A stretch of 64,000 nt of DNA from Primulina eburnea. Its lineage: Eukaryota; Streptophyta; Magnoliopsida; Lamiales; Gesneriaceae. The translations under genes were made by a program, and so were the position numbers. Below are positions 864-60,890 of this stretch, one piece after another. The notes under the pieces are model-generated. The model was not told the DNA's origin. It worked only from the letters and a program-made list of their open reading frames with translations, and did not search any database. The stretch lies in contig NC_133104.1 in the NCBI RefSeq assembly GCF_022965805.1, forward strand, positions 26,098,069 to 26,162,068, given 5' to 3'. How positions within the stretch are numbered: position 1 is the first letter of the stretch; each line of letters opens with the position of its first letter.

Positions 864-2613
864 TGTAATGCCCTAGATTTCATATCATGTTAAGCGAAGA
901 TTATTGAATTTGAACTAATGTGATTATAGCCGGGCCATTACGAGACTAAATTGGGCCAAGCATATGAATTACACAACTTGTGGACAGAGAGTCTGGCGCC
1001 CGAGCGGTAGTTTTTGACCGCCCGAGCGCCAGTGTTCATCAAATATATGTTGCGGGCAGAAGAGGTAGCGCCCGGGCGCTAGGTTGTGACCGCTCGAGCG
1101 CCAAGGTGCAATCCGGAAATGCTTGGACAGAGAATGCCGCGCCGAGCGCCGACCCAAGTTCATCGAATTACACTTCTTCGTTTAGCACCGCTCGAGCGCC
1201 GACCCAAGTTCAAGAAAAATAAGCCACATTGTTTTACATTCAAACTGGATATATATATTTGTCATCCTTTAGAATTCACATCAAAAAATGAAGAAGGGAA
1301 ATTGAAAATCTTTCAGAAAAATCCTTACGCCTTTATTTTTTTATCCGTCCGTCCGATTGTGAATCTGACTTCGGTACTGTTTTCCTATCGACACAGGCTT
1401 CAACTGGACGTAAGTTTTGTTAAGTTTTGATATGTCTTGAAATTACGATATTGTCAGAATTGAATGAGATTCATATATGATGTTCTTGACATGTTAAACA
1501 TCATAGAATCGAAGTCAGATTAAGAAACAAATATCATATGAAATTGTTATGATTTTCAGAATGGAATTGATTAAGATTAATGTCAGATTTGTACTGTGGT
1601 TGATTATAAGTTATTAGAATTGGTATATACTGATACGGTATTACCGGTATCGCAAGATTGTACTGTTGTACCGTCAGAATTTGATAAGACAAAGATGTAT
1701 TGATTTGAATAGAATATTGATACAGTATATTGATATTGTCATTGCCAGATTGAACATTGACAGACTTTGAGTTTGAGACTTCGATTGTATCAGAGCGACA
1801 AAACGAAAGGTATAAATTAATGTTGAGTTGGGATTGCACAAATCGAGTGAGGTTTGGCTCGAGTTTCCCTACATCACATACTTTATTTCACTGCATTGAT
1901 ATTGCAAATTATCAGATTGATATGTTTAGTCTATTGAATTATAGCAGAGCAAGAATTAGAGTCTAGGGCTGATCAGCCTAGTTAGGACAGAACCGCCGAG
2001 TCTTTGACAGAACCGCTAAGACTCTAGACTTACGGCGTATCGATGAGCTTAGATGTAGATCGACGTCTATTGTAGACATTCGATATAGCATACCAAAGTC
2101 TAAATTAGAACGGGATCCCTAGATTAGAAATGAGTTGAGATAAGATAACAAGTTATTGCTTTAAATACAGATTCGTATCATGTAGTCAGATTGATATATG
2201 TTTTAATGATTGTTTATGCTTTTATATATGTTTTATATGATTGCATTGATACATTGTTTATACTGGGATTTCTTTCTCACCGGAGTTATCCGACTGTTGT
2301 CGTGTTTGTATGTGTGCATGGCAACAGATGGGACAGGTTCAGGGTCACAGAGGTGAAGAAAGATCGAGATTAGAGTGGTGATTCCGGACCTGGATATAGA
2401 TATGTTTTATTACTTGATTGTAGTAGTTGAACCTTAGTTTTGAACTACATGGATGTTGTACAGGATTGTATCATTATACTGGTTTGTATAATAGAATGAT
2501 TCTAATACCTTCCGCATTTAAAAAAAAATAAAAATTTTAGACCCTGTTTATTCTAATTGATTAAATTATTCCCATTGATGATTAAGAAGATGATTAGCGT
2601 CCGGGTCCCCACA
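864..2613 (+). mobile_element. 3' LTR, family A (1750 bp)
   Basis: Starts TGTAATGCCC and ends GGGTCCCCACA, the same ends as five other plus- or minus-strand copies in the window. It holds a GC-rich palindromic array (994-1205), an AT-rich TATA-like stretch near 1249-1260 and the conserved 3' part with CACCGGAGTTATCC. Sequence after 2613 (TCGTATGTGAC) matches element G's other LTR near 4698, so this copy inserted into the 3' LTR of G. Confidence 0.9.
994..1205. repeat. GC-rich inverted-repeat array, motif GCGCCCGAGCGGT
   Basis: Pairs of arms such as GGCGCCCGAGCGGT and ACCGCCCGAGCGCC face each other across 6-9 bp and recur at about 994, 1065, 1140 and 1187. The array is far richer in GC than the surrounding LTR. 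A TATA-like run follows about 45 bp downstream. Confidence 0.85.
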
Positions 2614-3588
2614 TCGTATGTGACGTTCCAGAAGGGGGTCCGTGTAGGCATGGTATTTCTCGTTCTCGAATGTAAGGGACACGGACCCCGTGTATAGGTC
2701 CGTGAACACGTCCGTGTAGCCTCGGTCATCCTCTACTTGATTCTGATGCAACCCGAACCCTTCGAGCCTTGTTTCCAAGCTTTCATTGGTTGGATGAAGA
2801 GCAACATTCAACATCTTCAAGCGGACTATCGGGATTGGTTTTTTGAACGCATAGTGGCTGGCTAGATTCATAACATACTCCCTTTCTTTAAAAAGATTTG
2901 TCCTCAAATCTTGTCTTTCTTGATAACTTTGAAGATCAATACATTTCATGCCTTTTCCACAATCCTGCAAGTAGAGTTTAACAATGCTCGGGATCGACCC
3001 GGCTATTTCAATAAAATAAAATAAACCAACCTTGCACAGATATACATGAAGTGGTTTATTCAAAATAAAGAATCGCTCATCCTCACTCTTTTGGGCCACA
3101 AATATAACTTCTTTTTTTGTTTGTTTGGCCTCTTTTTCACACAACTCTTTATTTTCATCGATGGCCATTTCACTCTTTTTATCACTCATTTTTTCGACCA
3201 TCTCATTTTCTTTTTCTCTCAAATCATAACAAATTGATTCATCAATACAAATTAAATTCGTAGACAGTTGAGCAAAAGAAACAACTTGCACATCATCTAA
3301 CAACTCACACTCCACAGCACAACACTCAATACTCTTATGAGACGCAATTGGAGTATCAACATTCAAATCATCCACAAGTTTGGCAAGATTGGAAGTGGAA
3401 TCCACTACCTTCACATCCTCATTCGGGCAATGATGAAAATCATGTCCTACCTCTAGACACCACAAACATCGAATATCAGAAATATAATTATGTGAGAATT
3501 GCAATGTACCTTGATATCCACGTTTTGAACTCCTCGCTGGTGTCGCCGTGCTTCTCTCCTCTTTACTCATCCTTCCACTCTCATCCAC
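2566..3588 (-). CDS. Gag-like protein of non-autonomous element G
   Basis: A 340-codon open frame on the minus strand. Near residues 40-53 it has a CCHC zinc knuckle of the form C-x2-C-x4-H-x4-C (CLWCLEVGHDFHHC), typical of retrotransposon Gag nucleocapsid. The middle resembles the gypsy segment before RT (ILNKPLHVYLCK, DLRTNLFKERE). No protease, RT or integrase motif is present between the two LTRs, so G looks like a gag-only (TR-GAG-like) element moved by others. From the MNLASHYAF segment onward the protein is encoded by the 3' LTR itself. The last 16 codons and the stop lie in the inserted family A LTR, so the original C terminus is lost. Start chosen as the first ATG upstream of the zinc knuckle. 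Confidence 0.65.
   Translation of the reverse strand: MDESGRMSKEERSTATPARSSKRGYQGTLQFSHNYISDIRCLWCLEVGHDFHHCPNEDVKVVDSTSNLAKLVDDLNVDTPIASHKSIECCAVECELLDDVQVVSFAQLSTNLICIDESICYDLREKENEMVEKMSDKKSEMAIDENKELCEKEAKQTKKEVIFVAQKSEDERFFILNKPLHVYLCKVGLFYFIEIAGSIPSIVKLYLQDCGKGMKCIDLQSYQERQDLRTNLFKEREYVMNLASHYAFKKPIPIVRLKMLNVALHPTNESLETRLEGFGLHQNQVEDDRGYTDVFTDLYTGSVSLTFENEKYHAYTDPLLERHIRCGDPDANHLLNHQWE
2614..2870 (-). mobile_element. 3' LTR (partial), element G
   Basis: Near-identical by eye to 4713-4969. The LTR start (TGAATCTAGCC on the minus strand) is at 2870. The LTR is cut at 2613 by the family A insertion. It contains the CACGGACCCCGTGT type of palindrome. Confidence 0.8.
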
Positions 3589-3714
3589 TCGCCCATACTG
3601 TTAACGCAAATGTTTAAATTCTTCCTCCATTCTTTTCCCAAATTCTACCAACAATGACTAAAATTGACTATCAAGCATATTGCCCAATTTTTATTTATTT
3701 ATTTTTTTCAGTTG

Positions 3715-4280: not shown

Positions 4281-4969
4281 TGATGCGATCCCGCCCACGT
4301 GATATTTGATTTGTCCCGATCTTTGAAACAAGTAATTGATAGGTGTGATAATCGCCTCTAGATCACGCGGTCTAGCAACAATTAATCAACGGTAGAAACA
4401 ATCGCGTTCAAGAAAACCTCCAAAGAACCCGTCCTTGGCAACCCTCGTGAAAATCGATAGACGAACTACAAAAGAATCCACCCTTGAAAGTTCGATTTTG
4501 AAAACACCGAAGTGTGTTTGAGAGAAAATCTCACAATTTGATATCAAATCAATAATGAACAAAAGTTAAAAGTTTACATGTAGTCTAGCTTATATATAGG
4601 TAACAAACCCTAACTATAGAAAATTGCATATTTAAAGATATCAAATCTACTTGCCAAAATAATTAAAACTCTAAAGAAGGAAAAATCTGCGCGAAATCGT
4701 ATGTGACACGGACCCCGTGTAGAGGTCCGGAAGAGGGTCCGTGTAGGCACGGTATTTCTCGTTCTCGAATGTAAGGGACACGGACCCCGTGTACAGGTCT
4801 GTGTACACGTCCGTGTAACCTCGGTCATCCTCTACTTGATTGTGATGCAACCCAAATCCTTCGAGCCTTGTTTCCAAGCTTTCATTGGTTGGATGAAGAG
4901 CAACATTCAACATCTTCAAGCGGACTATCGGGATTGGTTTTTGGAACGCATAGTGGCTGGCTAGATTCA
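4281..4969 (-). mobile_element. 5' LTR, element G (689 bp)
   Basis: On the minus strand it starts TGAATCTAGCC and ends GGGATCGCATCA next to the PBS, with TG/CA ends. It has a palindrome array at 4697-4830 and a TATA-like CTATATATAAG on the minus strand near 4587-4605. The element sits in the gag of a minus-strand family A element, which resumes at 4970. Confidence 0.8.
4697..4830. repeat. Palindrome array, motif CACGGACCCCGTGT (LTR G)
   Basis: Repeated arms ACACGGACCCCGTGTA and GGTCCGTGTA. The same motif is found in the partial G LTR at 2635-2740 and, unexpectedly, in the Athila LTR at 22696-22952. Confidence 0.8.
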
Positions 4970-5822: not shown

Positions 5823-5842
5823 CTATCGCTTTGATACTACCT
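5823..5842 (-). other. Degenerate primer-binding site, family A
   Basis: Minus-strand AGGTAGTATCAAAGCGATAG lies two bases from the LTR end and corresponds to the TGGTATCAGAGCCATAG site of the copy at 52334, with several substitutions. Confidence 0.65.
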
Positions 5843-5844
5843 AT

Positions 5845-7638
5845 TGTGGAGACCCGGACGCTAATCATCTTCTTAATCATTATTGGGACAATTTAATTAA
5901 TTATAATATACAAGGTCTATTTTTTTTTAAAATACAGTATTAAATGTGGAACGTAATGGAATTTAATATAATATACTCAGTATAAAAGTACAAGTCGTGT
6001 ACAACATACATCAAACTTAAACTAAGGTTCAACAACTAATGTCAAGTGCTGAATCTTATCTACAGCAACGTCAAAGTCCGTGATCTCCATTCTAATCATG
6101 ATCTCTCCTCATCTCCTCGACCCTGATCCTGTCCCACCTGTTTTCATGCACACATACAAACACGACAACAGCCGGATAACTCCGGTGAGAAATATATCCC
6201 ATTATAAATCAATGAAACATGCAATCATATAAACAATGTAAAAGCATGTAACAGATATCAGTAACATGTATCAAAATCTGAAATATAATTAATATAAAAT
6301 AATTAATCAAACTCGTGACTCCAGGTCTCAGACTAAACTCAATCCTAGTCTAGGGATCCCGATTTCCAGATGTTGGCATTCCAATATCGAATTCAGTAAT
6401 AGAAGAAACTCCAATTCTATTCAATCAATATAACCAAACATCTGGTGTCTTGACCTATCCGTCACAGACTGTGGCACTATCGCCAATTCACTATCTTGTG
6501 ACAATGTGCAATGTTCCAGTGACGATTCCATCACTATCGGCACTTATGTCACAAGATCACTCGTCTAATACTCATCTAATACATGCTTCCTATAAATCAA
6601 TAGAACTTCAAATCAATGAACATAATAGCAATAAGTATGTGATTTAGGGAAACTCAAGTATATCATACGCGAGTCGATCTCCCGGTACCACATTGACTTA
6701 TACCTTTCTCTTCTCGGTCTGACGAAGTCCAAGTCTCGAAGTCAAATCTGTCTATATAAAATCTGAAATGACAATATCGAATAGACTGTGTTAATATACA
6801 ACTCAATTCAAGACTTGTTCTGATCAATACTCAAATCAAGACATAATCTGCTTAATGTCAACGATATTACGACACAATCTCAATCAATACTGAATCTGAT
6901 CAATATCAATCTACTGAAACGATATTACGACACAATCTCAATCAATACAAAATCTGATCAATATCAATCTACCGATGTTTCAACGGCATAATAATACAGT
7001 CTCAGTAACCCCGTCAATCTCAATATCATAGATATAATAACATGGCTAATAATCAATATCAGTACAACCCATAATCTTAAAAATACCAGATCATAATCCC
7101 AAATCTGTACAATCTCGCAATACAGGTAATACAATATCAGTATATACGAATCAATAACTCATCTGATCAAATTCTGAATAATATCAATATACTCAGCAAT
7201 ACAATATCAATCAAATATCAATCCCAATATCTCATAATCGATAACAACATAATTCTGATATCAAATCGGTCTAATCATAACCGAATCAAATCTGAAAATT
7301 CATAACAATTTCATATGGTATCTGTTCTTCGATCCGATTTCGATTATACGATATCTGATATTGCAAGAACAACATATGCGCGCACACAAGTCGTGCATAT
7401 GTGCGAGACCTTCTGGTCGCGCACCATTCTTTCCACACAACTCGCGCATTTGCGCGAGGTGTTCTGCCCATCTCGCGCATATGCGCGCATCTATGTCGCG
7501 CATATGCGCGAGGTGTACTATCCTCGCATATACTCTGTGTTTTATTCCGTCTTTTCGGTCTAATCCTTTACGTCTATAATCACCTCAATTATCATCAAAT
7601 CATTTTAGATTACGGTAATCAACTTCTCGGGCCTTACA
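5845..7638 (-). mobile_element. 5' LTR, family A (1794 bp)
   Basis: Begins TGTGGAGACCCGG and ends CGGGCCTTACA, the reverse complement of the family A ends. It is followed on the left by PBS and gag, so it is the 5' LTR of a minus-strand element that landed in the E LTR at 7639. The palindrome array (7376-7521) is of the CGCGCATATGCGCG type. Confidence 0.9.
7376..7521. repeat. Palindrome array, motif CGCGCATATGCGCG
   Basis: About six partly decayed copies of a palindrome centred on CATATG (for example CTCGCGCATATGCGCG at about 7472-7490). Neighbouring sequence is AT-rich. Confidence 0.85.
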
Positions 7639-8513: not shown

Positions 8514-8617
8514 TGTAATGCCCGGAAATTTAATCCAAGTAATCTGTAATTATTGATTTATAAACTGATATGATTATGAAAGGATTAACCGAGACACGAT
8601 TTGAGACAACGTGTGAA

Positions 8618-8872
8618 GATATATGTGCGAGGACAGTACCATCGGCGCACATGCGCGACATGAGACGCGCACATGCGTGAATTGGACAGAAGGTCTCGCG
8701 CATCTGCGCGAGCTGTGCGATGGGGCAAGGAGAATTCCAGTAGGTCTCGCGCATATGCACGAGGTAAGTCGCGCATATGCGCGAGCTGCCGAGGAGAACA
8801 ATGCGCAGACCAGTAGGTCTCGCGCATATGCGCCGCATGATGTCGCGCATATGCGCGAGACGTGCAGTAGGC
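8618..8872. repeat. Palindrome array, motif CTCGCGCATATGCGCGAG
   Basis: At least eight palindromic boxes, perfect or near-perfect, spaced 15-40 bp apart, inside the solo LTR. A (TA)22 microsatellite starts 37 bp downstream. Confidence 0.9.
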
Positions 8873-8904
8873 ACATCAAGCCACTTGGCCTAATGCATGT
8901 GTGA

Positions 8905-8908
<4 letters not shown>

Positions 8909-8952
<44 letters not shown>
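8909..8952. repeat. (TA)22 microsatellite
   Basis: Uninterrupted TA dinucleotides. It occupies the position where other A LTRs carry a short TATA-like stretch (1249-1260, 29638-29652, 59849-59871). Confidence 0.95.
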
Positions 8953-8955
<3 letters not shown>

Positions 8956-10441
8956 GCATTCAATTCTCCGGGGAAGAAAACAGAAATCCGGGGAAAAATT
9001 TGATCCTTGATTCTAAAATTCGAGTTAGGATCAATCCGTCCGTCTGATTTTGAATCCGACTTCGGTATCGAGTTCCTATCGACGTAGGCTACAACTTGAC
9101 GTAAGTTTTGCTACGTTTTGACATGCTTTGAAATTATGCTATTGTCAGAATTGAATGGAATTCATATATGATGTTCTTGACATGTTAGACATCGTAGAAT
9201 CGAAGTCAGATTAAGAAACAGACTGATTATAGAATTGTTATGAATTTTTAAGGTATATTGATTTATACCAGACAGATTTGAATTGTGATTGGATTACGGA
9301 TTGTATTGGATATGGGTTATGGATTGTAGCTGTGATCTGAGGATATTGTATTGACGGGGATACTGAGATTGTACCGTTATGCCGTTGATTTTGAATTAAA
9401 TCAAGATTGATCAGATTGTTATTGATTTGAAATGTATATTGATATGAGATTATTGATATTGTTATTGCCAGACAGACTGTGAATTCAGTACTTCGACTGA
9501 GCCAGAAACCGACGAAAGAAAGGTATAAGTCAATGTGGTATTGGGAGATCGACTTGAGTCGGATTAGACTTGAGTTTCCCTAAATCACATACTTTACTTT
9601 ATTGCATTGATATTTGCATTGATTTGACTGATGTACTTGTTTTCTTGAATTATAGATAGCAGGTATCAGATGAGTAATCTTGTGACAGAAGTTCCTGATA
9701 GTGGTGGAATCGCCACGGGAACATTGCACGATGTCTCAAGATAATGATATTCGCGATAGAGCTACAGTCCATGACGGATAGGTCAGGACACCGGATGTTG
9801 GTTATATCGAGTAATTAGGATTGGAATTCTTCTATTACGGAATTCGATATAGGAACACCATATTTGGTTATATCGAGTAATAGGAACAGAGTTCCTTCTA
9901 TTACGGAATTCGATATAGGAACACCACGTCTGGAAACCGGGATCCCTAGACTAGGATTGAGTCTAGTCTGAGACGTGGAATCACGTATATGTTTGACAGT
10001 TTTATGATTGATTATGTTTCAGATTTTGATACATATTACTGTTACCTGATTACATGCTTTATATTGGTTTATATGATTGCATGTTTCGTTGATTTATACT
10101 GGGATTTATTCTCACCGGAGTTATCCGGCTGTTGTCTTGTCTGTATGTGTACATGACAACAGGTGGGACAGGATCAGGGTCCAGGAGATGAGGAAAGATC
10201 GTGATTAGAGTGGAGGCTCCGGACTTGGATTAGAGATAGGGTTGGACACTTGACATTAGTTGTTAAACCTTAGTTTATTTTGAATGCATGCAGTACAAGA
10301 CTTGTATTGTATTTTATACTGATATGTATATGAGTTGATTTCACTACGTTCCGCATTTTAAAAAAAATTTAGACCCTGTTTTTAATTGATTAATTAGTCC
10401 CAATTATGATTAAGAACTTGATTAGCGTCCGGGTCCCCACA

Positions 10442-15762: not shown

Positions 15763-16178
15763 TGATGCCCCCAAAATATTCCACCGTGCATGAGTTTCCT
15801 TCCCGAGGACCTTAAATGTAACCCATCGGGCATGACTCGTCCAAATTCGATACCATCTATAAACGACAGTCGAACACCAAGCCCAGCCGCACCCCTGATG
15901 ACCGAGCCCTGGTGCCCGGTCGAGCTCTGTCACCAGGGTAGCGATCGGCCGAGCACGAGTGCTCGGCCACTGATGCCCCCAAAATATTCCACCGCGCATG
16001 AGTTTCCTTCCCGAGGACCTTAAACTTAACCCATCGGGCATGACTCGTCCAAATTCGATACCATCTATAAACGACGGTCGAACACCAAGCCCAGCCGCAC
16101 CCCTGATGACCGAGCCCTGGTGCCCGGTCGAGCTCTGTCACCAGGGCAGCGATCGGCCGTTCGGCCGAGCACCTGTGG
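15763..16178 (+). repeat. 208-bp tandem duplication in the Tat LTR
   Basis: TGATGCCCCCAAAATATTCC begins at both 15763 and 15971. The two 208-bp units differ at only a few positions (for example CCACCGTGCAT against CCACCGCGCAT). Each unit ends in the GATCGGCCG palindrome zone. Confidence 0.9.
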
Positions 16179-16340
16179 CCGAGCACTAGTGCTTGGCCAA
16201 GCTCTTATGGCCGAGCACTAGTGGCCGAGCCCTAGTGCTCGGCCGAGCACCTTTGACCGAGCACTAGTGCTCGGCCAAGCCCTTATGGCCGAGCACTAGT
16301 GGCCGAGCCCTAGTGCTCGGCCGAGCCCCTGTGGCCGAGC
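16163..16340. repeat. Palindrome array centred on ACTAGT, arms GGCCGAGC
   Basis: Several copies of a palindrome up to 22 bp long (arms GGCCGAGC, centre ACTAGT), alternating with GGCCAAGC(T/C)CTTATGGCC. A shorter version is in the inverted arm at 12645-12720, exactly where that arm breaks off. Confidence 0.9.
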
Positions 16341-18492: not shown

Positions 18493-19978
18493 TGTGGAAG
18501 GTAAGCCAAAAGAGCCCCGAAGTGTGTCGTGCGTTTCGTCGTTCCTCCAGTGACACATGTTGGGAGATTTAGCAAAACTTTTTTCTCAGACCTCCAAATG
18601 ATCTAAAATTTGGAGCGATTCAAGGAAAGACATAGGGCTACAACTTTGTAGTTTACAACCTTTTCTAATTCGGAAGGGAAGAGGCGTTTTTGAAGCGATC
18701 TTTAACGTGGCAGTGCGCAGAGTGGCGCCCGAGCGGTAATTTATGGCCGCCCACGCGCCACTACTTCTGGAATTTTGGGTTTCGGGCAGAATCATTGGTG
18801 CCCGAGCTGTAATTTTCGACCGCCCGAGCGCCGAGCACAGTACCAAAAGCGTGTTTTCGAGATTTTAATGATATAAGGCATAGATTTGTTCACTTTTCCT
18901 CATTCTTTTCTCCCCTATTCTCGATTTCTTCAGCAAAGGGAGAGCTAGGGTTCCATTCTTCTCATTTCCTATCTTTGATTCAAGCTCCTAGTTGGTTTAT
19001 TGTTGTTAGAGCAAGGTTTTCTTGGATTCAAGGAAGCTAAGGAAAGTTTTTGGGTTAGTTTATTCTTGGTTTTGGCATGAGAGATGATATTGGGTTTGAT
19101 GTGGTGTTGTTTTTATGGATTAATTGATATGGGTTATTGATTATTGAGAGGTTGATGGTGCAATACATGGTTTATTGTTGTAGGATTGCTATCAAGAGAT
19201 TAGATACAAGGTTCCAAGTGGTTGTAGGTGGAATCTCATTCTTGTGCTCACATGATAGTATATGTATTGTGTTTCAATGGTTTTAACATGTTATTCCCTT
19301 CCATTTGATCCATATTATGTATTGAATTACTTGATTGTATATTTGAGATAATTGAATGTCTCAATTGTGAAAAAGGGAATACAAGAGAAAAGAGTTTACA
19401 AAGTGTTTAATTAAATGCCCCAAAGAGAGTTTAAAATGATTTATGGATTGATAGATACATAGTCATAGATTGCATGCAATTAGTTGATCAACGACCATAG
19501 GCTTATATCCATCAGAGTTATCGATTAACATCGATGGGATATAGGTACAGAGACAGAGATACTATATAGATATCAATCCAACAGAGAAAAGAGAAATACC
19601 ATCTTATTGTTATATTATTGCTATGTTATTCATGATTCAGAGTTGATGGTATTTAATGTTTTTAAAGCCATGTTTTACAGAGTATGATATTTACATTGCT
19701 ATGTAAGAGTTCCACTTTTTATACTCATTTCAGTTATTCATGTGATGCAGATAAGAGCGACGAACTAGGACGTTGATTGAAGCCGGGGTCATATGCATAT
19801 AGAGATGGAAGGAAGTTGAAGATTATTTTGTTATACATGATCAAAATGATATTTTGTATTTTGACGCAACACTTTTTGGATCATGTATATTCTTTTGATG
19901 GTATATATATCCTTCCTCCCTTTAAAGAAAAATTTTAAATTCCGCTGTTATTTTATAAAATGGGTCAGAGGTGTCACA
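18493..19978 (+). mobile_element. LTR family B (about 1.5 kb) inside Athila
   Basis: The end, GGTCAGAGGTGTCACA at 19978, and most of 18860-19978 match the reverse complement of the complete B LTR at 44436-45966. The 5' end is approximate (TG at 18493 is my best guess). No internal sequence follows; Athila gag begins on the right. I could not find a target duplication matching TAGAC at 19979-19983. Confidence 0.7.
18717..18841. repeat. Inverted-repeat array, motif GCGCCCGAGCGGT, in LTR B
   Basis: Two arm pairs (GGCGCCCGAGCGGT with CCGCCCACGCGCC; GGTGCCCGAGCTGT with CCGCCCGAGCGCC). This is the motif of two family A LTRs (994-1205, 59625-59803), while the other B LTR carries an unrelated motif in the same place. 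Confidence 0.85.
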
Positions 19979-19983
19979 TAGAC

Positions 19984-21660: not shown

Positions 21661-23175
21661 AAAACTTTATCGAAGATTTCAGTTGGGAATAGCTCTAGCA
21701 AGCGGACTAGGTCAAGTTATAGTAATGGACGACAAGTCCAAGTATCGATACCACATAAACTATTATTTAAGTACTAAGATTTAAATTATTCGATTTAATC
21801 TTTACAAACAATAACAAGTGATTTGATGATAATTCAAACTAGTTAAATTAAATTAAATTATGCTAAATTAATAACTAAGATCGAATTTGCATAACAGAAT
21901 GAAACTTGGGAAATTTTCAAAATTCAACAAAATGAACGGGAACGCACAATGGTCCAAACTTTGATTATTGCCACGCATTGGAATTAATTAACCACAAATT
22001 ATTGATGTCACAACGAAATTCTATAATTTAACTATAAATCTATATCTAGAATTTATACTCCTATTTCATTTAATAGTCCAATTATTTCTAAATGAATTTA
22101 ATTAAACAAAAACGCATTATTCAACGATAGAATCACGGTTGTCGCCTAAAATCGCACCTTGAAATCGAATACTATTTCTAGTCGGTTAACCGTGTGTTGA
22201 TTAATATTTTTGAAGCTAAATTCAATATATTCTCTTTCGAGTCAAGATCGAACGACAAACATGCAAATAATTGACCAAATTAAAAGCACTAAAATTACGC
22301 AAACATTAATCAATAACATGAAATTAATTCATAAATCAAATAATCCAGTGAATGAACAAGATCAAAATTTTGTCCATATCGTGGTCCCGATCACAAGAAA
22401 AATTACTCCATAAATTCTAAACTAGAAGAAAATCTAATATTCGAATTCATGAATGAAAAAAGAAAACAAGAGAGGAGAAAATCTCAGTGACGGTGCGCGA
22501 ATCTTCTGTGTGAAGTGCGATTTTTCTCTTTTCTCCCAAGTCATCGCCGTCTTCTCTGCAATTTTATCCAGTATAAAAAACTTTCCAAAAGTCCCCTTTG
22601 CACCTTGGGTTCTTCCCTTTTTCTTCTATTTTCAGCCTGATTTGCTATCTTCTCCAAATCTCTAAGAAAATCTTCGCCAAATCTGAATCTCATCTCAAGG
22701 GCACGGACCCCGTGTAAGCCTCAGGATTGGGGTCCGTGTACTTTCGCTTCAAAACTATTTCCGGGAGATCGTGGGCGCGAACCATGTGTAGAGGTCCGTC
22801 GTGGGGTCCGTGCAGTCACTGGAATTTTCTTTCTCGGATGGTAATGGACACGAACCCCGTGTACATGTCTGGAACGGGGTCCGTGTAGGCTTCGTAAAAT
22901 TCTTCCTTGGGCTACTAAGACACGGACCCTTACACGGGGTCCGTGTAGGGGTCTAGATATTCTCTTTGTGCTATTTTCCTTTTTTTCCGGGTATTTCTGA
23001 CATGGCATTGCGAAGCTTGACTTTCTTTCCCTTTCGCTGGATTTTATCATCCTTTGGTCAAACCTGCAATTAGCAATAATAAAACGAATTAAGCGCAAAA
23101 CTCGGAATAAAAATTCCAGATAAGCACGAATACGACAAAATAAAGTCCCTAAAACGCTATATAATTCGTGCTTAC
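21661..23175 (-). mobile_element. 5' LTR, Athila element (about 1.5 kb)
   Basis: Lies just upstream of the PBS on the minus strand. It has the palindrome array 22696-22952 and a Gln/His-free AT-rich 3' half with no gene. The far end is set only by the start of sequence shared with LTR C at about 23181, so it is uncertain by some 10 bp. ORFs at 22210-22665 and 22721-23209 have no recognisable motif. Confidence 0.7.
22696..22952. repeat. Palindrome array, motif CACGGACCCCGTGT, in the Athila LTR
   Basis: Four box pairs: a CACGGACCCCGTGTA-like arm followed 8-30 bp later by GGGGTCCGTGTA, at about 22700, 22790, 22850 and 22920. It is the same motif as in the unrelated LTR of element G. Confidence 0.9.
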
Positions 23176-24902: not shown

Positions 24903-25284
24903 TGTAATATCCCAACCTTTTATCCTTTTATTGTCAATGATGTTATCCATTGGTTTGGTGTTTTGGATATATGGTGATTGTTATGGTTCTTGTGTATAGT
25001 TGTTGGAAGGGTTGATATTTCTTATTATGACATCAATATGGTTATTGTATATTCATGGTTTATCATTGCATGGTGGTAAAGGTGGTTTATAGTTGTATTA
25101 TTATTTTATGGTTGTTTTTAAGGAGTTGTTATGGTTGTGAAGGTAATATGGTGGGATTTGGAGTGATGGTTTATTTAGATGATTTGAACATGTATTTGGA
25201 TGGATTGTTGCATTGGTATTGCATGGAATTGGAAGAGGAAGTTTACGGTTCAAGTGTATCCTAGGTGGGCTTGTGACTTATGAT

Positions 25285-25440
25285 GTGGTGCAGGAGCAGC
25301 TACGCAGCGTCGGAGGAATGGCGCTGCAGCGCTGAAGGTGCACTTGATCTGCAAGAGGTAGCGCCTAGGCACTACAGCTGCCGAGAATCGAGCGCCGCTG
25401 CGCCAAGGAGGAGGCGCTGCGGCGCCAGGTAGTGCAGAAG
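25285..25440. repeat. GC-rich palindrome array in LTR D, motif GCGCTGCAGCGC
   Basis: Boxes such as GCGCTGCAGCGC, GCGCCGCTGCGCC and GGCGCTGCGGCGCC within about 150 bp. The 3' LTR has a shorter, partly decayed version at 33497-33632. A TATA-like stretch follows about 40 bp downstream. Confidence 0.85.
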
Positions 25441-25596
25441 TGCTACTCGGGAATCATGATTTTGGCCGAAGAAAAGGCTTTTAAATATCATTTCTAGTGG
25501 CTTCTACTCATTTTCATCCTTCTTCCTTAGCATGCATCGGTTCTCGCTCCTTCCATTAAGTTTTCTCTCCTTCATCTTTCCATTTCAAGTTCAAGG

Positions 25597-26728
25597 CACT
25601 ACAAGAAAAATACAAATCAACAACACTCATAGACGATTTTTTAAAAACAGTTTTCTTTGATGTGTCTAAAAAACCGTTGTCTTTGATGTGTCAACGACAA
25701 CAGTTTTTAAAAACAGTTGTCTATGAGCGTTTTTTTTTGGGCTAAAACAACGGTTTTTAAAAACTGTTGTCTAAGAGATTTTTTTTTTGCTACAACAGCT
25801 GTTTTAACAACCGTTGTCTATTAGCGTTTTTTTAGGCTACAACAATGGTTTTTAAAAACTGTTGTCTTTCGGACAGTTTTTTGGAAAACCGTCGCAAATT
25901 TAGATTAGTGATGGTGCATAAAACCGTCGCATTGTTAAATCCGTGACGTTTTAAAAAACCGCAACTTAATTTTTAAATTAGCGACGAAATAACCGTCGCT
26001 AAGATAATTTCGCGACATATTACCGACGGTTTTACTATAGTCGGCGCTTTGTAAACCGTCGCTAATAGCGATGGTTTATACAAAAACCATCACAAATTGT
26101 CTATAAATATCCGCATCCTTGGTCCTTTTCTTCCTACACCAAAGTCTTCTCTTTTCCACGATTTTCATTTCACTTACCAAATTCTTCTCTCTTCCACGAT
26201 TTTCATTTCACTTTAATTTTAAGTGTTAAAGATTATAAATATTATTAATTTAGTAAGATTGTAAGGTTTTTTTGTTAGGTTTATTAAATTATAACCGTAA
26301 TCTTTTTTTTTTTACGAAAAAAATAGCAACGAAAATTATATGAAAAATCGTCGCTAATTAGCGACATAAACCATAATACAAACCGTCGCTAATTAGCGAC
26401 GGAAATTATATGACAACCGTTGCAAAAGTTAGTTTTACTACTATTTTTCAATGCTACGACCACGGTTTTTTACCGTCGTCTTTAGACATCTACGACCATG
26501 GTTAAAAACCGTTGTATTTGAGCGCACCCTTTAACCACAGGGCCTTTAACAACGGTTTTACAAGACCTACGACAACAGTTTTTCACCGTTGTCTTTGATG
26601 TCTACAACAACGGTTTTTCATTGTTGTCTTTCAACGCACCCTTTAACCACAGGGGCTTTAACAACGGTTTGATTTGACCTACGACAATGGTTTTTCACCA
26701 TTGTCTTTTGCCTTTTTTTTTTGTAGTG
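25597..26728. mobile_element. Non-autonomous CACTA (En/Spm-type) transposon, 1132 bp
   Basis: The left end is CACTACAAGAAAAATAC and the right end is TTTTTTTTTTGTAGTG, inverted CACTACAA termini. The 3-bp target duplication is AGG (25594-25596 and 26729-26731). The paralogous 3' LTR of element D has the uninterrupted site near 33786-33800 (CAAGTTGAAGGGTCC), an empty-site control. Many subterminal hairpins of the type ACAACGG-TTTT-CCGTTGT are present. No ORF or transposase, so it depends on an autonomous relative. Confidence 0.95.
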
Positions 26729-26973
26729 AGGGTGCTAGTAGATTTCTTAGCTCCTCCTACTTAAGTATCCAATCTCCAAGGTAAGGATTGTAGATTTTTG
26801 AATGTAGTGCTTTTGAGGAGTTGAAGGTATATGTTGGCTTGGTTGATTTCTATGATCAATGGTGATGATTAATGGTTGATTATATGTATTTTATTGTACC
26901 AATCCCTTCAAAGTCATATTAGCAACCATTTGCTTCTTGAGTTGTAAGTAGAGGCTTTCTTTCTTTGCTCACA

Positions 26974-26975
<2 letters not shown>

Positions 26976-27037
<62 letters not shown>
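26976..27037. repeat. (AT)31 microsatellite
   Basis: Pure AT dinucleotides in the 5' LTR of D. The 3' LTR has the same site with 28 units at 34044-34099. Confidence 0.95.
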
Positions 27038-27042
<5 letters not shown>

Positions 27043-34041: not shown

Positions 34042-34104
<63 letters not shown>

Positions 34105-44435: not shown

Positions 44436-45966
44436 TGTGACACCTCTGACCTCTTTAAATAAAATACACAGTGGAAATAAAATTTTCTTTAAAATATGGA
44501 AGGAGTTTCAAAATACATTTCTTTAAACATCTTTACAACAAAATAAATACATGATCATTTAAATGACATAACAAAATACAAAACATCATTCCTATGATCA
44601 TGCCAAAATCATCCTTCCAACGGTGTATGCATATGACCCCTATCCACAGTCAACGTCCAGGGCCTCCACTCTGATCTGCATCACATGAAATAACTGAAAT
44701 GAGAATAAATCTCAGCAAGTGGAACTCTTACATAACAATGAACATAAACTCTGTAAAACATAGCTTTGAAATCATAAATACCATCAACTCTGAATCATAA
44801 ACTCTGAACATGAATATCATAGCAATAGCATATAAATGAGATGGTATTTCTCTTTACTCTGGGGATTGATATCAATAGTATCTCTGCTCTGGTGCTCGTA
44901 TCCCTATCGATATAAACCGATAACTCTGAGGGATATAAGCCTATGGTCGTTGATCAACTAATTGCATGCAATCTCTGACTATGTAATTATCAATCCAATA
45001 AAACATTTAAAATCTCTCTATGGCATTAACAATCACTTTGAATACTCTTTCTTTCTCTTGTATTCCCTTTGAACAATAATGAGACATAAAATGCCTCCAA
45101 TATATATAACAATGGTATCAATACATACTATGGATCAAATGGAAGGTAATATCACAATAAAACTCTTGAAACACCATACTATATAATCATGTGAGCACAA
45201 AGGGTGAAATTCCACTTACAAACCACAATAACACCTACATCAACTCCATATCCAAGAATCCAAGACAAATAATCCATTAAACTAACAAATACATCAAACC
45301 TATAACATCTCTTCTCCAAAACCAAGAGATAACACCACCAAAAGCTTACCTTAGCTTCCTAGCACCAAGGAGAACCTCGAACTCAAGTCGAATCGTCAAC
45401 TAAAAGCTTGGATCGAAGATAGAAAATGGAAGAAATGGAAGAAAACCCTTATTTCTAGATAGAAAAACGAGATGGAGAAGGAAGAAAAGAGAAAAACTGA
45501 AGTCATCTTATCCAAAAAGGTACTTAAAATCTCGACCATACCTCAATAATGCATGACCGCGGGTGCGCTGCCACAAGCACCGCGGGTGCGCCTAGCTCAC
45601 GGCACAACACAATAATTCTGGAACACAAACACCGCGGGTGCGGTACTGCACACACCGCGGGTGCGGTCTCTGCACTGCCGCGGGTGCGGTGATGCCACGG
45701 CTCTCCAAATCTAAATTCATGAACAGTACACCGCGGGGGCACTCCTACTATGAGCGCGGGTGCACTCTGGTCACGGCCAAGAAACAAAACAATGCAACCA
45801 AAATCGATCCGAAACGCTGAAACGAACAACCAACAACAACTACACCTCAAGACAATAATAACCAACAATACTATGGCCCATAAACACAACTCTAAACATC
45901 TAATCAAATAACCCAAATAAACATACAAAACTTAAACCGTACCGTACACCGGGCTCGGCTATTACA
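44436..45966 (-). mobile_element. Solo LTR, family B (1531 bp), target duplication ATATA
   Basis: Begins TGTGACACCTCTGACC and ends CTCGGCTATTACA, with TG/CA ends. ATATA is on both sides (44431-44435 and 45967-45971), although the site is an AT run, which weakens that support. No internal sequence. Copia RT lies on both sides. Confidence 0.85.
45545..45772. repeat. GC-rich palindrome array, motif ACCGCGGGTGCG, in LTR B
   Basis: Seven or so boxes with CACCGCGGGTGCG(G/C), centred on CCGCGG. It occupies the place that holds GCGCCCGAGCGGT boxes in the other B LTR (18717-18841). Confidence 0.9.
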
Positions 45967-48041: not shown

Positions 48042-49648
48042 TGTGGGGACCCGGACGTTAATCACGTTCTAAATCATAATTATGACTAATTAATCAATTA
48101 GTATAAACAGGGTCTAATTTTTTTTTTTTTTTTAAAATGCAAAGCGGAAACGTAATGTAATTAAATTCAAATTACATATTAAACATAACATATAATTATT
48201 GTATGATCTACAATAATCCAACTAGGTTCAACTACAAGTCAGTGCTGAATCCTAAGTTGCTTCAAAGCCCGGATCTCCACGCTATCTAGTCCAGCCTCGT
48301 ACTCTTTTTGACCCTGATCCTAGCCCACCTGTTGCCATGCACACATACAAACAAGACAACAGCCGGATAACTCCGGTGAGATATAAATGTCCCAGTATAA
48401 ATCATGTATACATGCCATCATATAAACAATATAAAAGCATAAGACAACAAATCATATCCTATTTCAAAATCATGATATGAATCAATAACAAGAATAAGTC
48501 ATATTCTAAACATGTACCCTGATCCGGAACATAATTCAATATCAAAAATAAATCATATTCTAAGCATGTACCAATATCAGGAACGTAATTCAACATCCAT
48601 CAATATTAATCGATATAACTGTCACTCAAACTCGTGACTCTACGTTTTAGACTAGATTCAATCCTAGCCTAGGGATCCCGGTTTCCAAATGTGGTGTTCC
48701 TATATCGAATTCCGTAATAGAAGGAACTCTGTTCCTATTACTCGATATAACCAAATATGGTGTTCCTATATCGAATTCCGTAATAGAAGAATTCCAATCC
48801 TAATTACTCGATATAACCAACATCCGGAGTCCTGACCTATCCGTCATAGACTGTAGCTCTATCGCTAATATCGTTATCTTGAGACATCGTGCAATGTTCC
48901 CGTGGCGATTCCACCACTATCAGGAACTTCTGTCACAAGATTACTCATCTGATACCTGCTATCTATAATCAAGAAAACAAGTACATCAGTCAATTCAATG
49001 CAAATATCAATGCAATAATGTAAAGTATGTGATTTAGGGAAACTCGAGTCAAACCTCACTCGAGTTGTGCAATCCCAACTCAACATTAATTTATACCTTT
49101 ATCTTCTCGCTCAGAAGAAGAAGAAGAAGAATTCCCGACTCTATCTCGGTCCATTCTCAATCTGATAACGACAATTGAATAGGTATAATATCAATACACA
49201 ACTCAATTCAATACCTGTTCTGGTTAATATTCAAATCGAATTATACTCTGATCAATATTGAATCAATATGCAATCTAAATCAATACCGAATCTGATCAAT
49301 ATTAATCCCTTGATGTTTCGACGGTATAATAATATAATCTCGATAACCCCGTCAATCCGAAAATCACAGATATAATACCAGACTTTGTAAACAGTATCAG
49401 TATAACTCATAATCTCAATGATAATACAATTATGATATCGAATCTCAATCAAATCGACTCCGAAAATCATAACAATTCCATAATCAGTCTGTTTCTCAAT
49501 CTGACTTCGATTCTATGATGTCTAACATGACAAGAACATCATATACGAATCCTATTCAATTTTGACAATATCATAATTTCAAAACATGTCAGAACGTAGC
49601 AAAACTTACGTCCAGTTGTAGCCTGCGTTGATAGGAACACGATACCGT
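48042..49648 (-). mobile_element. LTR family A, truncated
   Basis: Begins TGTGGGGACCCGGACG. It runs through the usual blocks, including the doubled CGATATAACCAA region at 48690-48825, and stops at GATACCG near 49648, before the palindrome array and LTR start (about 500 bp missing). E LTR sequence follows directly. Confidence 0.85.
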
Positions 49649-50607: not shown

Positions 50608-52328
50608 TGTAATGCCCGAGATTTATATTCTGTTAATCTGAGATTATTGATTTATGAATTGTTGCGATTAGAAGGACCACATGGAGATGAGATTTGGAAT
50701 AGCATGAGCATTGTTATGTGCGAGGACAGAAGGTCTCGCGCGCGCGCATATGCGCGAGCATGGCAGAAGACCTCGCGCATATGCAAGAGATAGGGCGCGC
50801 ATCTGCGCGAGCATGTCAAATCCTCAAGTGCGGAGACAGTAGGTCTCGCGCATATGCGCGGGGACAGGGCGATCATATGCGCGAGAAGTTGGAATGTTGT
50901 GCGTCCAGACAGTAGGTCTCGCGCATATGCACCGATGATGGTCGCGCATATGCGCGAGACATGCAGTGCAAAGAAATGAGCCACTTGTCCTTGGCATGCA
51001 TATAACATGTAACAAATCTTCAATTCAATTCAGAATTCCAGGGAAGAAAAGAGGAAGCCATCGAAAGTTTCCAAACCATTCATATCTTAAAATTGTGATT
51101 TTTCAACATCCGTTTATCCGAATTTCAATCCGAGTTTATTTACGTGCTCCTATTGTCAACGGCTACAAAAAGATGTAAGTTTTCTTCATTTTCTTACATG
51201 ACTCAAAATTGTGATATGGGAGAAATCAGATATGGTTAATATACGGTGTTCTTGAGAATTTAGTCATCATATAATCGAAACCGGATCGAAGAACAGGTAC
51301 TGTATGAAATTGTTATGATTTTTCAGATTTGATTTGATTGAGATTACACAGATTTGGTATCAGATTTTGTGTTGTGGATTGATTATGAGTTATTGAGATG
51401 TCTTGTTTGAATGGAATAGTGATATTGTATATTTCGAATGTTATTTCCAGATTGAGTATACAGCTTCGAATTCAAGACTTCGAATTCGTCATATCGATAA
51501 AAAGAAAGGTATAAATCAATGTCGAACCGGGAGATGCGACTCGAGTTAGATTTGACTTGAGCTTCCCTAAACCACATACTTGTTTATTATTGTTTTAATA
51601 CCTTTATATTACTTGAATGTGTATGCTTATTCTATTGATTTACAGAATAGTATAGAATAGAAGATCGATATCGAGAACGAGTTATGGGCAGAGGTGCCAA
51701 ATCTGTGGCAGAGATGCCAAGAAACTGGATGTTTGTTTATATCGATGTGAATAGGAGTAGATCGACTCTTATTGCAGAGATTTGATATAATGTGCCAACG
51801 TCCGGGAACCGGGATCCCTAGACTAGAGAAGAGTCGAGTCAGAGTTTAAGAGTCAAAGAGTTTGATTTACAGTCTTATATAGATTCATGTCTTTCAGATT
51901 TGATACATGTTATTGATAACTGTTATATACTTTTATATATGTGTTTATATGAAATGCATGTATTCATTGTTTATATTGGGAATTCTATTCTCACCGGAGT
52001 TATCCGGCTGTTGTTGTGTTTATATGTGTACATGACAACATGTGCGACAAGATCAGAGTCAAGAAGAGGATGAGAGATCAAGTTTAGGGTGGAGATCCGG
52101 ACCCAGAAGTAGAATTGGTTTCAGCACCGGACATGTAGTTGTTGAACCCTAGTTTGATATGAATGTATATTGTACAAAACTTGTACCTTTAATCTTGATG
52201 TTTATATAAGATTGATTATATAAATTCCGCACTTATGTATTTTAAAAAAAAATTAGACCCAGTTTATTTAATAGATTCATTTATTCCAAAAGACGATTAA
52301 GAAATGAATTAGCGTCCGGGTCCCCACA
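50608..52328 (+). mobile_element. 5' LTR, family A (1721 bp)
   Basis: Starts TGTAATGCCCGAG and ends GGGTCCCCACA, followed by a PBS and gag. It has the palindrome array 50735-50962. The five bases before it are GAAAC. The 3' half of this element is missing after 54558. Confidence 0.9.
50735..50962. repeat. Palindrome array, motif CTCGCGCATATGCGCGAG
   Basis: Seven or more boxes, some decayed (GGGCGATCATATGCGCG), plus a CGCGCGCGC run at about 50736-50746. Confidence 0.9.
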
Positions 52329-57786: not shown

Positions 57787-57797
57787 CCCTGATACCA
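57787..57797 (-). other. Second, inner PBS-like site
   Basis: CCTGATACCAC on the plus strand (GTGGTATCAGG on the minus), like the site at 57923-57935. It is followed by TGTTTTTT and 130 bp of AT-rich sequence. Possibly a remnant of an earlier priming site or of a tandem LTR end. Confidence 0.45.
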
Positions 57798-59500: not shown

Positions 59501-60890
59501 TGTAATGCCCGAAATTTAATCATTATAATCAGACGTTGATTATTGACATGATTGAGGTTATAAGAACTCAAATGACGAGGCCGGGCGTCGTGGCATGGTT
59601 AGCCAAGAATTTGGACAGAACCTTCGGCGCTCGAGCGGTAGAAAAAGACCGCCCGAGCGCCAATGCATCGCAAATTGATCTTTGGACAGAACGTGTGGCG
59701 CCCGAGCGGTAGAAATTGACCGCTCGAGCGCCAGGGAATTGTAAGATAAGTAACTGGGCAGAAGGTTCGGCGCCCGGGCGGTAATTCTTGACCGCCCGAG
59801 CGCCACCTGGAAATCATGAAGTGCGCCACTTGCTTTCATGCATGTCATAGATGTATATATATATATATACACACATGCAAATCCTTCAGAATATTCAGAA
59901 GGAAATCGAGAAGTTGGGGAAAGGCTTCGTTCTTGAGTTTTGGAAATTAAGTACGAGAAATCCGTCCGTCAGATTTTGAATCTGACTTCGGTACCGTGTT
60001 TCTAGCAACGACAGCTACAACTGGACGTAAGTTTTGTTACGTTTAGACAAGATTTGAATTTATGATATTGTCAGAACTGAATATGAATCAGATATGATGT
60101 TTCTACGACCGTAGATATCGTATAATTGAAGTCAGACTGAAGAACAGATTGTTTATGTATTTGTTATGATTTTTGGAGTCGATTTGACTGAGATTTCATA
60201 TCAGAATTGTATTGTTATGCCGTCGAAACATCAGTTGATTAGATTGATCAGATTCAGTAATGATTTAGATTTCATCGTGATATCGTTGATATGAATCAGA
60301 TTGTATATTGTTCAAATATTGATCAGATTATGTACTGAGTTGAGTATTGATCAGAACAGATTGTGAATTGAGTTATTAATTGATACAGTGTATTCGATAT
60401 TGTCATTTCAGATTGGATATGGACATATTTGAATACAAGTCATCGTCTTCGTCAGACAGGGACAACAAAGGTATAATTCATGTGATATTCGGGAAGACAC
60501 AACTCAAATAAGATCTTATTTGAGTTTCCCAGCAAAAATCACATACTAGCTTTATTGTTTATATTATGCTTTGTTTACAGATTGTTATACATTGCATTTT
60601 AAGATATTTATGCTTTGTTTACAGATTGTTATACATTGCATTTGAGATAGGAAAGTTTGACAGATAGTCAGACTTCTAGACGTTCGGTGTATCGTTACAT
60701 AGGAGCAGACACCCTCCTATTGTAGATTATTCGATACAGATATGACCGAAGTCTAGGAATAAGACGTACGTCACCCCGATTGGGAGGGTAGGTGACAGAC
60801 AGTGACGTCTTATTCACCCCGGGATCCCTAGAGTTATAGTTGAGTCGAGTCTAGACATGATTTGACTAGAACTGCTGTTGCGACTTTGAT
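59501..60890 (+). mobile_element. LTR family A, 5' part
   Basis: Starts TGTAATGCCCG and contains the array 59625-59803, a TATATATATATATATAC run at 59851-59870 and the block CCGGGATCCCTAGA near 60820. It is interrupted at 60890 by LTR H. The rest lies outside the window. Confidence 0.85.
59625..59803. repeat. Inverted-repeat array, motif GCGCCCGAGCGGT
   Basis: Three arm pairs: GGCGCTCGAGCGGT with ACCGCCCGAGCGCC near 59627, a second near 59697, a third near 59769. Same motif as 994-1205 and 18717-18841. Confidence 0.9.

What the first reader, a model, noticed from the sequence alone, without database searches (positions are those of the whole stretch)
864..60890. Exchangeable palindrome cassettes on the 5' side of LTR promoters across unrelated retrotransposon families
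Seen in the sequence: LTR families A, B, D, G, Tat, Athila and F each hold a 120-400 bp array of short palindromes, GC-rich in all but F. Where a TATA-like box can be seen (A, D, G, Tat, F and more weakly B), the array lies on its 5' side. Copies of the same family carry unrelated arrays: A has CTCGCGCATATGCGCGAG (7376, 8618, 29697, 50735) or GCGCCCGAGCGGT (994, 59625); B has GCGCCCGAGCGGT (18717) or ACCGCGGGTGCG (45545). Unrelated families share an array: A with B, and G (4697) with Athila (22696, CACGGACCCCGTGT). Inference: the arrays are a modular cis-element gained by exchange, perhaps a methylation target, a transcription-factor platform or a small-RNA source. I know of no described system with this exact behaviour.
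Basis: partly seen in the sequence, partly recalled or inferred. Interest (0 to 1): 0.88.

Follow-up and report, generated by a model that had tools for sequence, protein, structure and literature searches.

The report
Swappable palindrome arrays in plant LTRs
In a plant genome, several families of jumping genes carry the same kind of repeated, paired, mirror-image DNA motif near their promoter, and in one family this block has been swapped for a different version many times, which looks like a plug-in control switch.

Summary
The arrays are real. CGC-N4-GCG has the highest score of 832 inverted-triplet/gap combinations in the window (52 found; 100 shuffles mean 4.8, max 9), and 49 of 52 lie inside arrays. 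The genome (apparently Primulina eburnea) has thousands of exact copies of three array motifs and none of the reversed controls.

Two corrections. The "unrelated" arrays of families A, B and E are variants of one element: CGC-N4-GCG sites paired 22-23 bp apart, repeated about every 72-75 bp, with an array-specific N4. "F" is a CACTA-type DNA transposon, and Tat does not fit.

Exchange is strongly supported in family A: on a 48-LTR tree that leaves the arrays out, array type needs 12 changes (9 forced by well-supported branches; a 46-LTR rerun gives 11, AU p 5e-5), with a sharp 5' border, and no CAT/CCGAG mixture in 69 arrays. One array type occurs in four LTR families, and family B carries three types. 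Linkers show little recent transfer between families.

Most likely this is a modular upstream enhancer: paired sites for a dimeric host DNA-binding protein, swapped as a block by template switching. Function is inferred; no expression, methylation or binding data were available.

The parts
864..2613 (+). Family A LTR copy A1; CCGAG-type array about 994-1200 (CGC-N4-GCG centres 1002, 1024, 1074, 1096, 1194), TATA-like run about 1249-1259 (by eye)
5842..7637 (-). Family A LTR copy A2; CAT-type array about 7373-7512
8514..10441 (+). Family A LTR copy A3; CAT-type array about 8645-8862 (spacings 22,31,51,22,51,23), TA run about 8908-8953 (by eye)
28053..30045 (-). Family A LTR copy A4; CAT-type array about 29697-29908
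48042..49647 (-). Family A LTR copy A5, truncated at its 5' side, array absent
50608..52328 (+). Family A LTR copy A6; CAT-type array about 50735-50958; followed by gag and protease pieces (52936-53397, 53671-53997)
59501..60886 (+). Family A LTR copy A7 (3' truncated); CCGAG-type array about 59626-59804 (spacings 22,49,22,50,22); TA run about 59853-59870 (by eye)
18690..19980 (+). Family B LTR copy B1 (5' border not fixed); CCGAG-type array 18724-18833
44437..45965 (-). Family B LTR copy B2; CCGCGG-type array 45555-45767 (CGC-GGGT-GCG on the + strand, spacings 23,52,23,23)
24908..27877 (+). Family E copy E1, split by a CACTA-type insertion at 25597-26728; CTGCAG-type array 25318-25427
33091..34961 (+). 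Family E copy E2 (uninterrupted); decayed CTGCAG-type array 33515-33622
4704..4830 (+). Family G array G2, CACGGACCCCGTGT type (spacings 24,48); sister G1 at about 2630-2700
22700..22946 (.).
25597..26728 (.).
15900..16340 (.).

Best explanation
The arrays are a modular upstream promoter element of LTR retrotransposons. In its commonest form the unit is CAG(A/T)A, then a CGC-N4-GCG palindrome centred 17 bp after the start of that box, then a second CGC-N4-GCG 22-23 bp later; units repeat at about 72-75 bp (also about 53 and 65). Sites of one array mostly share one N4 class; different arrays use different N4. In family A the array sits upstream of an ABRE-like word, an RY word (CATGCA) and a TATA box. 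Shown: the sites, the spacing, the CAG box in most units of A and C, the position in A, repeated switching of array type in family A, one array type in several families and three types in family B. Inferred: a dimeric host DNA-binding protein (or a few related ones) binds CGC/GCG half-sites in pairs and drives transcription; the block is swapped when two RNAs are copied together, with one jump in or near the R region past the start site and a second in the conserved first 88 bp of the LTR, or by gene conversion. Choice of array type would tune when or where the element is transcribed.
For: CGC-N4-GCG has the top z of 832 inverted-triplet/gap combinations (52 observed, 6.6 local expectation; 100 shuffles mean 4.8 max 9), 49 of 52 inside arrays. 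Spacing classes: CAT 179 of 193 and CCGAG 211 of 228 adjacent distances fall in 21-24, 30-32, 41-45 or 48-53. CAGA at -10 from the dyad start in 59 of 67 A and 17 of 19 C dyads, 8 of 17 H, 4 of 15 B; CAGA/CAGT at -8 from the 18-mer in 57 of 94 CAT pairs; both equal -17 from the first centre. Sites conserved while linkers diverge between families. Switching. Borders: in 7 of 10 switched pairs that had the anchor, mean identity is 0.86, 0.86, 0.81 over the first 88 bp, 0.61 over 88-110 (same-type pairs 0.84), and 0.85-0.88 from about 105 bp past TATA. Array versus backbone similarity Spearman -0.11 and +0.07, the 5' end versus backbone 0.28 and 0.31. No CAT/CCGAG mixture in 69 arrays. ABRE-like word 21 of 47, RY word 31 of 47 in 60 bp after the array (shuffle means 0.1, 0.4). 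In ONSEN most hybrid-LTR recombination fits the first template switch in R (PMC5668417, passages).
Against: No protein, transcript or binding datum. Linkers show little recent cross-family transfer apart from A-C. Helical phasing is suggestive for CAT only (6 of 500 class-level nulls) and absent for CCGAG (220 of 500). Just 5' of the 3' anchor, switched pairs keep 0.68-0.75 identity and same-type pairs 0.76-0.86, so the 3' border is soft. Array type is somewhat clustered on the tree (10 of 500 shuffles as low). The CACGGACCCCGTGT type, in B as L085, is not CGC-N4-GCG. 17 of 69 arrays hold at least one N4 outside the CAT and CCGAG classes, among them WB2 (all five sites) and five B copies with TAGG. 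The CAG box is displaced or missing in many B and H dyads. RY and ABRE words were not found in the B, C, H, K copies looked at. Loci were picked by array motif; the array-independent sample of family A did not complete. Relatedness inflates the motif counts in family A.
Confidence: 0.6

Rival explanations
1. Selfish minisatellite: the arrays expand and contract by slippage and are homogenised by unequal exchange or gene conversion; spread between copies is a by-product and they do nothing for the element.
For: Tandem period about 72-75 bp, variable site number, mostly one N4 class per array.
Against: Linkers diverge between families while sites, inter-site length and (in A, C, partly H) the CAG box stay; the same grammar with different N4 in several families; constant place upstream of TATA in A; 49 of 52 sites of the window restricted to arrays.
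Confidence: 0.17
2. RNA hairpin element: the paired palindromes fold in the 3' U3 of the genomic RNA and serve export, stability or packaging.
For: Inverted arms; a 14-15-bp stem can be drawn in the CCGAG dyad; U3 is transcribed at the 3' end (recalled).
Against: In the CCGAG dyad the core CCGAG is mostly kept on the same strand in both arms, so the hairpin carries C-A mismatches (83 and 75 of 114 usable dyads at the two positions), with no covariation between arms (678 and 2000 of 2000 shuffles as high; within arm 1 alone 46 of 2000); CAT arms do not covary; no Rfam match in the window.
Confidence: 0.1
3. Convergence or old inheritance instead of exchange between families: each family evolved or inherited the same binding sites under selection, and only copies inside one family swap arrays. 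Not exclusive with the best explanation.
For: Cross-family linker identity is near background for A-B, A-H, B-C, B-H, C-H; mainly sites and CAG box are shared.
Against: A-C arrays align at 80% over 193 bp with raised linker identity; a few single linkers exceed every shuffled pair (A-C 8 of 688, A-B 4 of 344, A-H 2 of 602, B-C 1 of 128); B carries three types.
Confidence: 0.35
4. Silencing-related arrays: CpG-rich sites that attract or escape DNA methylation, or a shared small-RNA source.
For: Arrays are GC-rich (0.58-0.59) and CpG-rich.
Against: CpG observed/expected is 1.3-1.5 in arrays, not depleted, but it is also 1.05-1.47 in the flanks, so this says little; the idea does not explain the fixed 22-bp pairs or the CAG box.
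Confidence: 0.08

Closest known systems
Modular U3 evolution of Tnt1/Retrolyc1/Retrosol (Solanaceae copia elements; PMC1838419, passages)
   Same: Variation concentrated in U3; U3 and RNAseH described as modules with different histories; propagation with diversified U3
   Different: There the variants are divergent U3s inside one superfamily; here a geometrically constrained array is replaced between LTR 5' end and R, with the same array type in several LTR families
crapaud LTR subfamilies of Podospora (PMC10787394, passages)
   Same: Variation mostly limited to U3 upstream of TATA; recombination between subfamilies proposed, template switch discussed
   Different: 'palindrom' and 'exchange' occur 0 times in the main text; no sharing between families in the passages seen
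Intra-family recombination of ONSEN during bursts (PMC5668417, passages)
   Same: Most recombination in LTRs fits the first template switch, using homology in R, near the 3' border seen here
   Different: Experimentally seen inside one family; no enhancer array swap in the passages seen
Tandem repeats in retroviral and Tnt1 U3 (mentioned in PMC3601003, passages; the 72-75-bp enhancer repeats of SV40 and murine leukaemia virus are recalled)
   Same: Tandem regulatory repeats in U3, similar period
   Different: Sites here are paired palindromes with variable centre, shared by several plant LTR families
G-quadruplex motifs near promoters in plant LTRs (PMC5838962, abstract)
   Same: Recurrent motif near LTR promoters of plants
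   Different: Not quadruplex motifs; palindromic sites with fixed spacing and N4 types

Membership tests
Modular U3 evolution in an LTR retrotransposon family (family A) | Variable block confined to U3, flanked by conserved LTR sequence on both sides | tested here: met
   5' border sharp, 3' border soft; in L063 against WA4 the 5' flank is replaced too
Modular U3 evolution in an LTR retrotransposon family (family A) | U3 type incongruent with the phylogeny of the rest of the element | tested here: met
   12 changes in 48 LTRs, 11 in 46, AU p 4.7e-5; tree from sequence 3' of the array, not from coding regions
Modular U3 evolution in an LTR retrotransposon family (family A) | Module alters transcription | not testable with these tools
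   no expression data
Exchange of one module between different LTR families | Same array type in families with unrelated flanks | tested here: met
   CCGAG in A, B, C, H (29, 7, 7, 5 of 50 sampled loci, 2 unassigned; loci overlap or pair up in part); CAT in A and K (23 and 1 of 24)
Exchange of one module between different LTR families | Recent identity across linkers as well as sites | tested here: inconclusive
   raised for A-C, near background for the other five family pairs
Structured RNA element | Covariation of stem arms | tested here: not met
   Rfam none in the window
Helically phased protein-binding array | Spacing in multiples of about 10.5 bp | tested here: inconclusive
   CAT 6 of 500 nulls as high, CCGAG 220 of 500
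   no transposase looked for
Ty3/gypsy LTR retrotransposon (family A) | gag, protease and reverse transcriptase domains next to the LTR | tested here: inconclusive
   Retrotrans_gag 1.7e-5 and RVP_2 1.1e-18 found; the third piece (54187-54579) matched no Pfam family at 0.001

The most novel reading that the evidence does not exclude
A dedicated recognition system: one family of host dimeric DNA-binding proteins reads CGC-N4-GCG pairs, with the four central bases as a specificity code, and unrelated LTR retrotransposon families of Gesneriaceae tap it by trading whole, nearly homogeneous arrays, switching code repeatedly as activators change or silencing catches up.
Probability: 0.25. Interest if true: 0.87.

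Novelty: new variant of a known kind. Interest (0 to 1): 0.72.

Why it matters
LTR promoters are known to diversify, but how unrelated plant retrotransposon families obtain the same regulation is open. A short, countable cis-grammar shared by several families, with a code that switches as a block on a tree, makes it directly testable which host factor drives bursts, whether elements compete for it, and whether arrays move between families. It also offers thousands of natural variants of one promoter element in one genome.

Tried and rejected
RNA hairpin: covariation tests in 114 usable of 118 CCGAG dyads and 219 CAT sites negative between arms; Rfam none. CpG decay as a sign of methylation: no depletion in arrays or flanks. 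Helical phasing as proof of protein binding: not upheld for CCGAG. Arrays as GC-rich low complexity: reversed controls 0. L090 was first counted as family B with a CACGGACCCCGTGT array; its B part lies at a junction away from the usual array place, so only L085 is counted. L055 (A-like 5' end by eye only) and L073 (no array recognised) were left unassigned; L004 (family K) and L020 (one site) were not in the tree; overlapping loci and second LTRs (L031, L040, L041, L042, L045, L047, L048, L049, L054) were left out of it. WA2 was left out of the promoter-word count (47 of 48). L030 (long branch) and L052 (truncated) were dropped in a rerun, which gave 11 changes. The motifs and CGCNNNNGCG were searched in the paper library: two chance hits each, none on retrotransposons. 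Searches for LTR palindromes, modules and shared arrays gave no description of this system among the listed papers; 'Primulina eburnea' with genome and LTR gave 0 papers. An array-independent sample of family A, the ACCGCACCCGCGGT search and a genome-wide two-site spacing search did not complete. The script printed its result and was then ended by the time limit.
Full report
What the sequence is. The window lies in an 812-Mb genome on contig C4. A gag piece of family A matches Gesneriaceae proteins (Primulina, Dorcoceras, Henckelia; 98 hits, one of them without a name), and one hit sits on a 65,783,404-base contig named Primulina eburnea, exactly the length of contig C1 of the window's genome. 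The window is a nest of retrotransposons. Family A has gag and protease pieces next to an LTR; a third piece matched no Pfam family.

Arrays are real and numerous. GC-rich near-palindromes number 38 against 2-9 in 20 local dinucleotide shuffles. Exact array motifs occur at 2649 places (CTCGCGCATATGCGCGAG, its own reverse complement) and 3832/3869 (GGCGCCCGAGCGGT) and 3603/3334 (CACGGACCCCGTGT) times forward/reverse; the same letters read backwards occur 0 times. That rules out plain GC-rich low complexity.

One element behind several arrays. Among 832 combinations of an inverted trinucleotide and a gap of 0-12, CGC-N4-GCG has the highest score in the window (52 found, local expectation 6.6, z 17); the rest of the printed top list is TA microsatellite patterns and CGC-N6-GCG. 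One hundred shuffles give 4.8 on average, 9 at most. Forty-nine of the 52 lie in arrays: six of family A, two of B, two of E and one GC-rich block of a copia-like element. The central four bases are array-specific: ATAT, ACAT and near variants (CAT type); CCGA, TCGA, CCGG (CCGAG type; TCGG is CCGA on the other strand); GGGT (B2; ACCC on the LTR strand); TGCA, TGCG, CGCT and others (E). In 69 arrays none mixes CAT with CCGAG sites; 17 of the 69 hold one or more other N4, among them B2 and five B copies with one TAGG site. The CACGGACCCCGTGT type does not fit this formula.

Geometry. Adjacent centre distances: CAT (27 arrays) 95 of 193 at 21-24, 25 at 30-32, 12 at 41-45, 47 at 48-53, 14 elsewhere; CCGAG (45 arrays; overlapping loci dropped, second LTRs of an element kept) 127 of 228 at 21-24, 1 at 30-32, 10 at 41-45, 73 at 48-53, 17 elsewhere; B2 23,52,23,23 over its five intact sites; the CACGGACCCCGTGT type (20 loci, 93 distances) 24 (24), 49-50 (22), 72-75 (24), 12 (14), others 9 (raw). 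So pairs of 22-24 bp repeated at 72-75 bp recur with different palindromes. The 10.5-bp periodicity is above a class-level null for CAT (6 of 500) and not for CCGAG (220 of 500); I treat phasing as unproven.

A companion box. In CCGAG dyads CAGA starts 10 bp before the dyad in 59 of 67 (A), 17 of 19 (C), 8 of 17 (H, 3 more at -9) and 4 of 15 (B, 6 more at -6); second LTRs of C and H elements count separately. In CAT pairs CAGA or CAGT starts 8 bp before the 18-mer in 57 of 94. Both places are 17 bp before the first palindrome centre, counted on the LTR strand. In the CACGGACCCCGTGT family M it is seen at -15 or -39 in part of the units; in B2 it is not at -17 by eye.

Switching in family A. 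A maximum-likelihood tree of 48 family A LTRs, built only from sequence 3' of the array (857 columns), needs 12 changes of array type (26 CAT, 22 CCGAG), 9 forced by starred branches; shuffled labels need 16.1 on average, and 10 of 500 shuffles are as low, so the type is partly inherited. Without the long-branch row and a truncated row: 11 changes, 9 forced, one-clade hypothesis rejected, AU p 4.7e-5. Well-supported groups with opposite arrays include L002/L053, L008/L074 and L015 with L029 and L052. Borders: L015 against L029 and L052, and L003 against L032, are close over the first 86-88 bp, unrelated through the array, and close again at or somewhat before the TCCGTCCGTC word. Over 7 of 10 opposite-type pairs that I chose from the tree (3 lacked the anchor; some copies are used twice) mean identity is 0.86, 0.86, 0.81 in the first 88 bp, 0.61 in 88-110, 0.68-0.75 in the 70 bp before the anchor, and 0.85-0.88 from the anchor about 105 bp past TATA; 6 of 10 same-type pairs give 0.94, 0.87, 0.91, 0.84, then 0.76-0.86 and 0.92-0.94. 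The 5' border is therefore clear, the 3' border soft. L063 against WA4 differs: the 5' flank is replaced too (0.64 against 0.89 downstream). Array similarity does not rise with backbone similarity (Spearman -0.11, p 0.05, over 300 CAT pairs; +0.07, p 0.31, over 231 CCGAG pairs) while the 5' end does (0.28, 0.31) (values of 1.00 with L030 are short-overlap artefacts). Loci were found by array motif, so frequencies are not genome frequencies, but the motif does not choose the backbone.

Between families. Of 50 loci fetched with the CCGAG motif, 29 are family A, 7 B, 7 C (LTR start TGTAAGGACCGTG), 5 H (LTR start TGATAGGTGGTG), 2 unassigned; of 24 fetched with the CAT motif, 23 are A and 1 is K (LTR start TGATAAGTGCATT) (several loci are two LTRs or overlapping views of one element). 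Family B carries CCGAG (8 copies with the window's), CCGCGG (B2) and CACGGACCCCGTGT (L085, flank 78-80% identical to B copies, ending about 60 bp before the array). A-C arrays align at 80% over 193 bp, starting 17 bp before the first centre. Linkers without the CAG box (81 linkers), mean identity against shuffled: A-C 0.542/0.480, A-B 0.452/0.434, A-H 0.513/0.491, B-C 0.452/0.430, B-H 0.376/0.399, C-H 0.467/0.461; pairs above every shuffled pair: 8 of 688, 4 of 344, 2 of 602, 1 of 128, 0 of 112, 0 of 224. So the sites are shared widely, the linkers hardly. Recent transfer is plausible for A and C and perhaps single B copies such as L036; elsewhere old sharing or convergence is as good.

Promoter context. 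In family A TATAWAW follows the last palindrome centre at 48-64 bp in 42 of the 43 LTRs (of 48) that have it within 200 bp. Between array and TATA stand G[AC]CACGT (ABRE-like) in 21 of 47 and CATGCA (RY) in 31 of 47; shuffle means 0.1 and 0.4; the stretch 300 bp downstream 0; G[AC]CAC[GT]T and CATGCA start 14-16 bp apart in 19 of 24 copies with both. ABRE and RY are names recalled from seed promoters; they suggest, and do not show, embryo or ABA-linked expression. Copies are related, so the counts overstate independence. The B, C, H and K copies looked at lack these words.

How it works, most likely. A dimeric protein contacts CGC and GCG half-sites across four free bases; two such sites about two turns apart plus the CAG box make a unit; several units make an enhancer 5' of the core promoter. 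Half-sites are kept while N4 is nearly uniform within an array, as expected if arrays re-expand from one unit or if N4 is read. Exchange inside a family fits co-copying of two RNAs: in ONSEN most recombination in LTRs fits the first template switch in R (PMC5668417, passages), near the 3' border here. The 5' border needs a second switch or gene conversion. Seven presumed LTR pairs of single elements (same strand, 5-10 kb apart) have arrays alike at 252 of 255, 250 of 255, 187 of 190, 185 of 190, 184 of 185, 316 of 324 and 111 of 116 positions, with the same site spacing in 5 of 7, so array-bearing elements moved fairly recently.

Against other readings. The hairpin reading fails on covariation; in the CCGAG dyad both arms mostly keep CCGAG on the same strand (the arm-1 count is partly biased by the search motif). 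Within arm 1 a weak association exists (46 of 2000 shuffles). Rfam gives nothing. CpG is not depleted in arrays or flanks. No expression, methylation or small-RNA data were available.

Novelty. U3-module evolution is known (Tnt1, crapaud, ONSEN; passages). I found no description of a common paired-palindrome grammar shared by several LTR families, or of its code switching as a block, in the library searched (listings and abstracts only, apart from the papers named). I file it as a new variant of a known kind.

Noticed in passing
25597-26728: CACTA-type DNA transposon with ends CACTACAA and a 3-bp duplication AGG inside the E1 copy; E2 (33091-34961) is the uninterrupted counterpart. Rich in AACCGTTGTCGTAG-like palindromic repeats.
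   Followed up: yes
   Followed up: partly
57580-57790: GC-rich block next to copia-like GATACCACTG primer-site words (by eye), with five CGC-N4-GCG at 21, 18, 21 and 12 bp; outside an LTR by eye.
   Followed up: partly
3723-4154: Tandem run of a unit of about 20 bp, GTGAACAGTAATTCCGGC, next to the G arrays; it contains the AACAGTA word.
   Followed up: no
whole window: The genome appears to be Primulina eburnea: a protein hit lies on a contig of exactly the length of contig C1.
   Followed up: yes
first 60 bp 3' of family A arrays (e.g. 8862-8925, 59805-59865): ABRE-like and RY (CATGCA) words at near-fixed distance from each other before TATA in family A only.
   Followed up: partly
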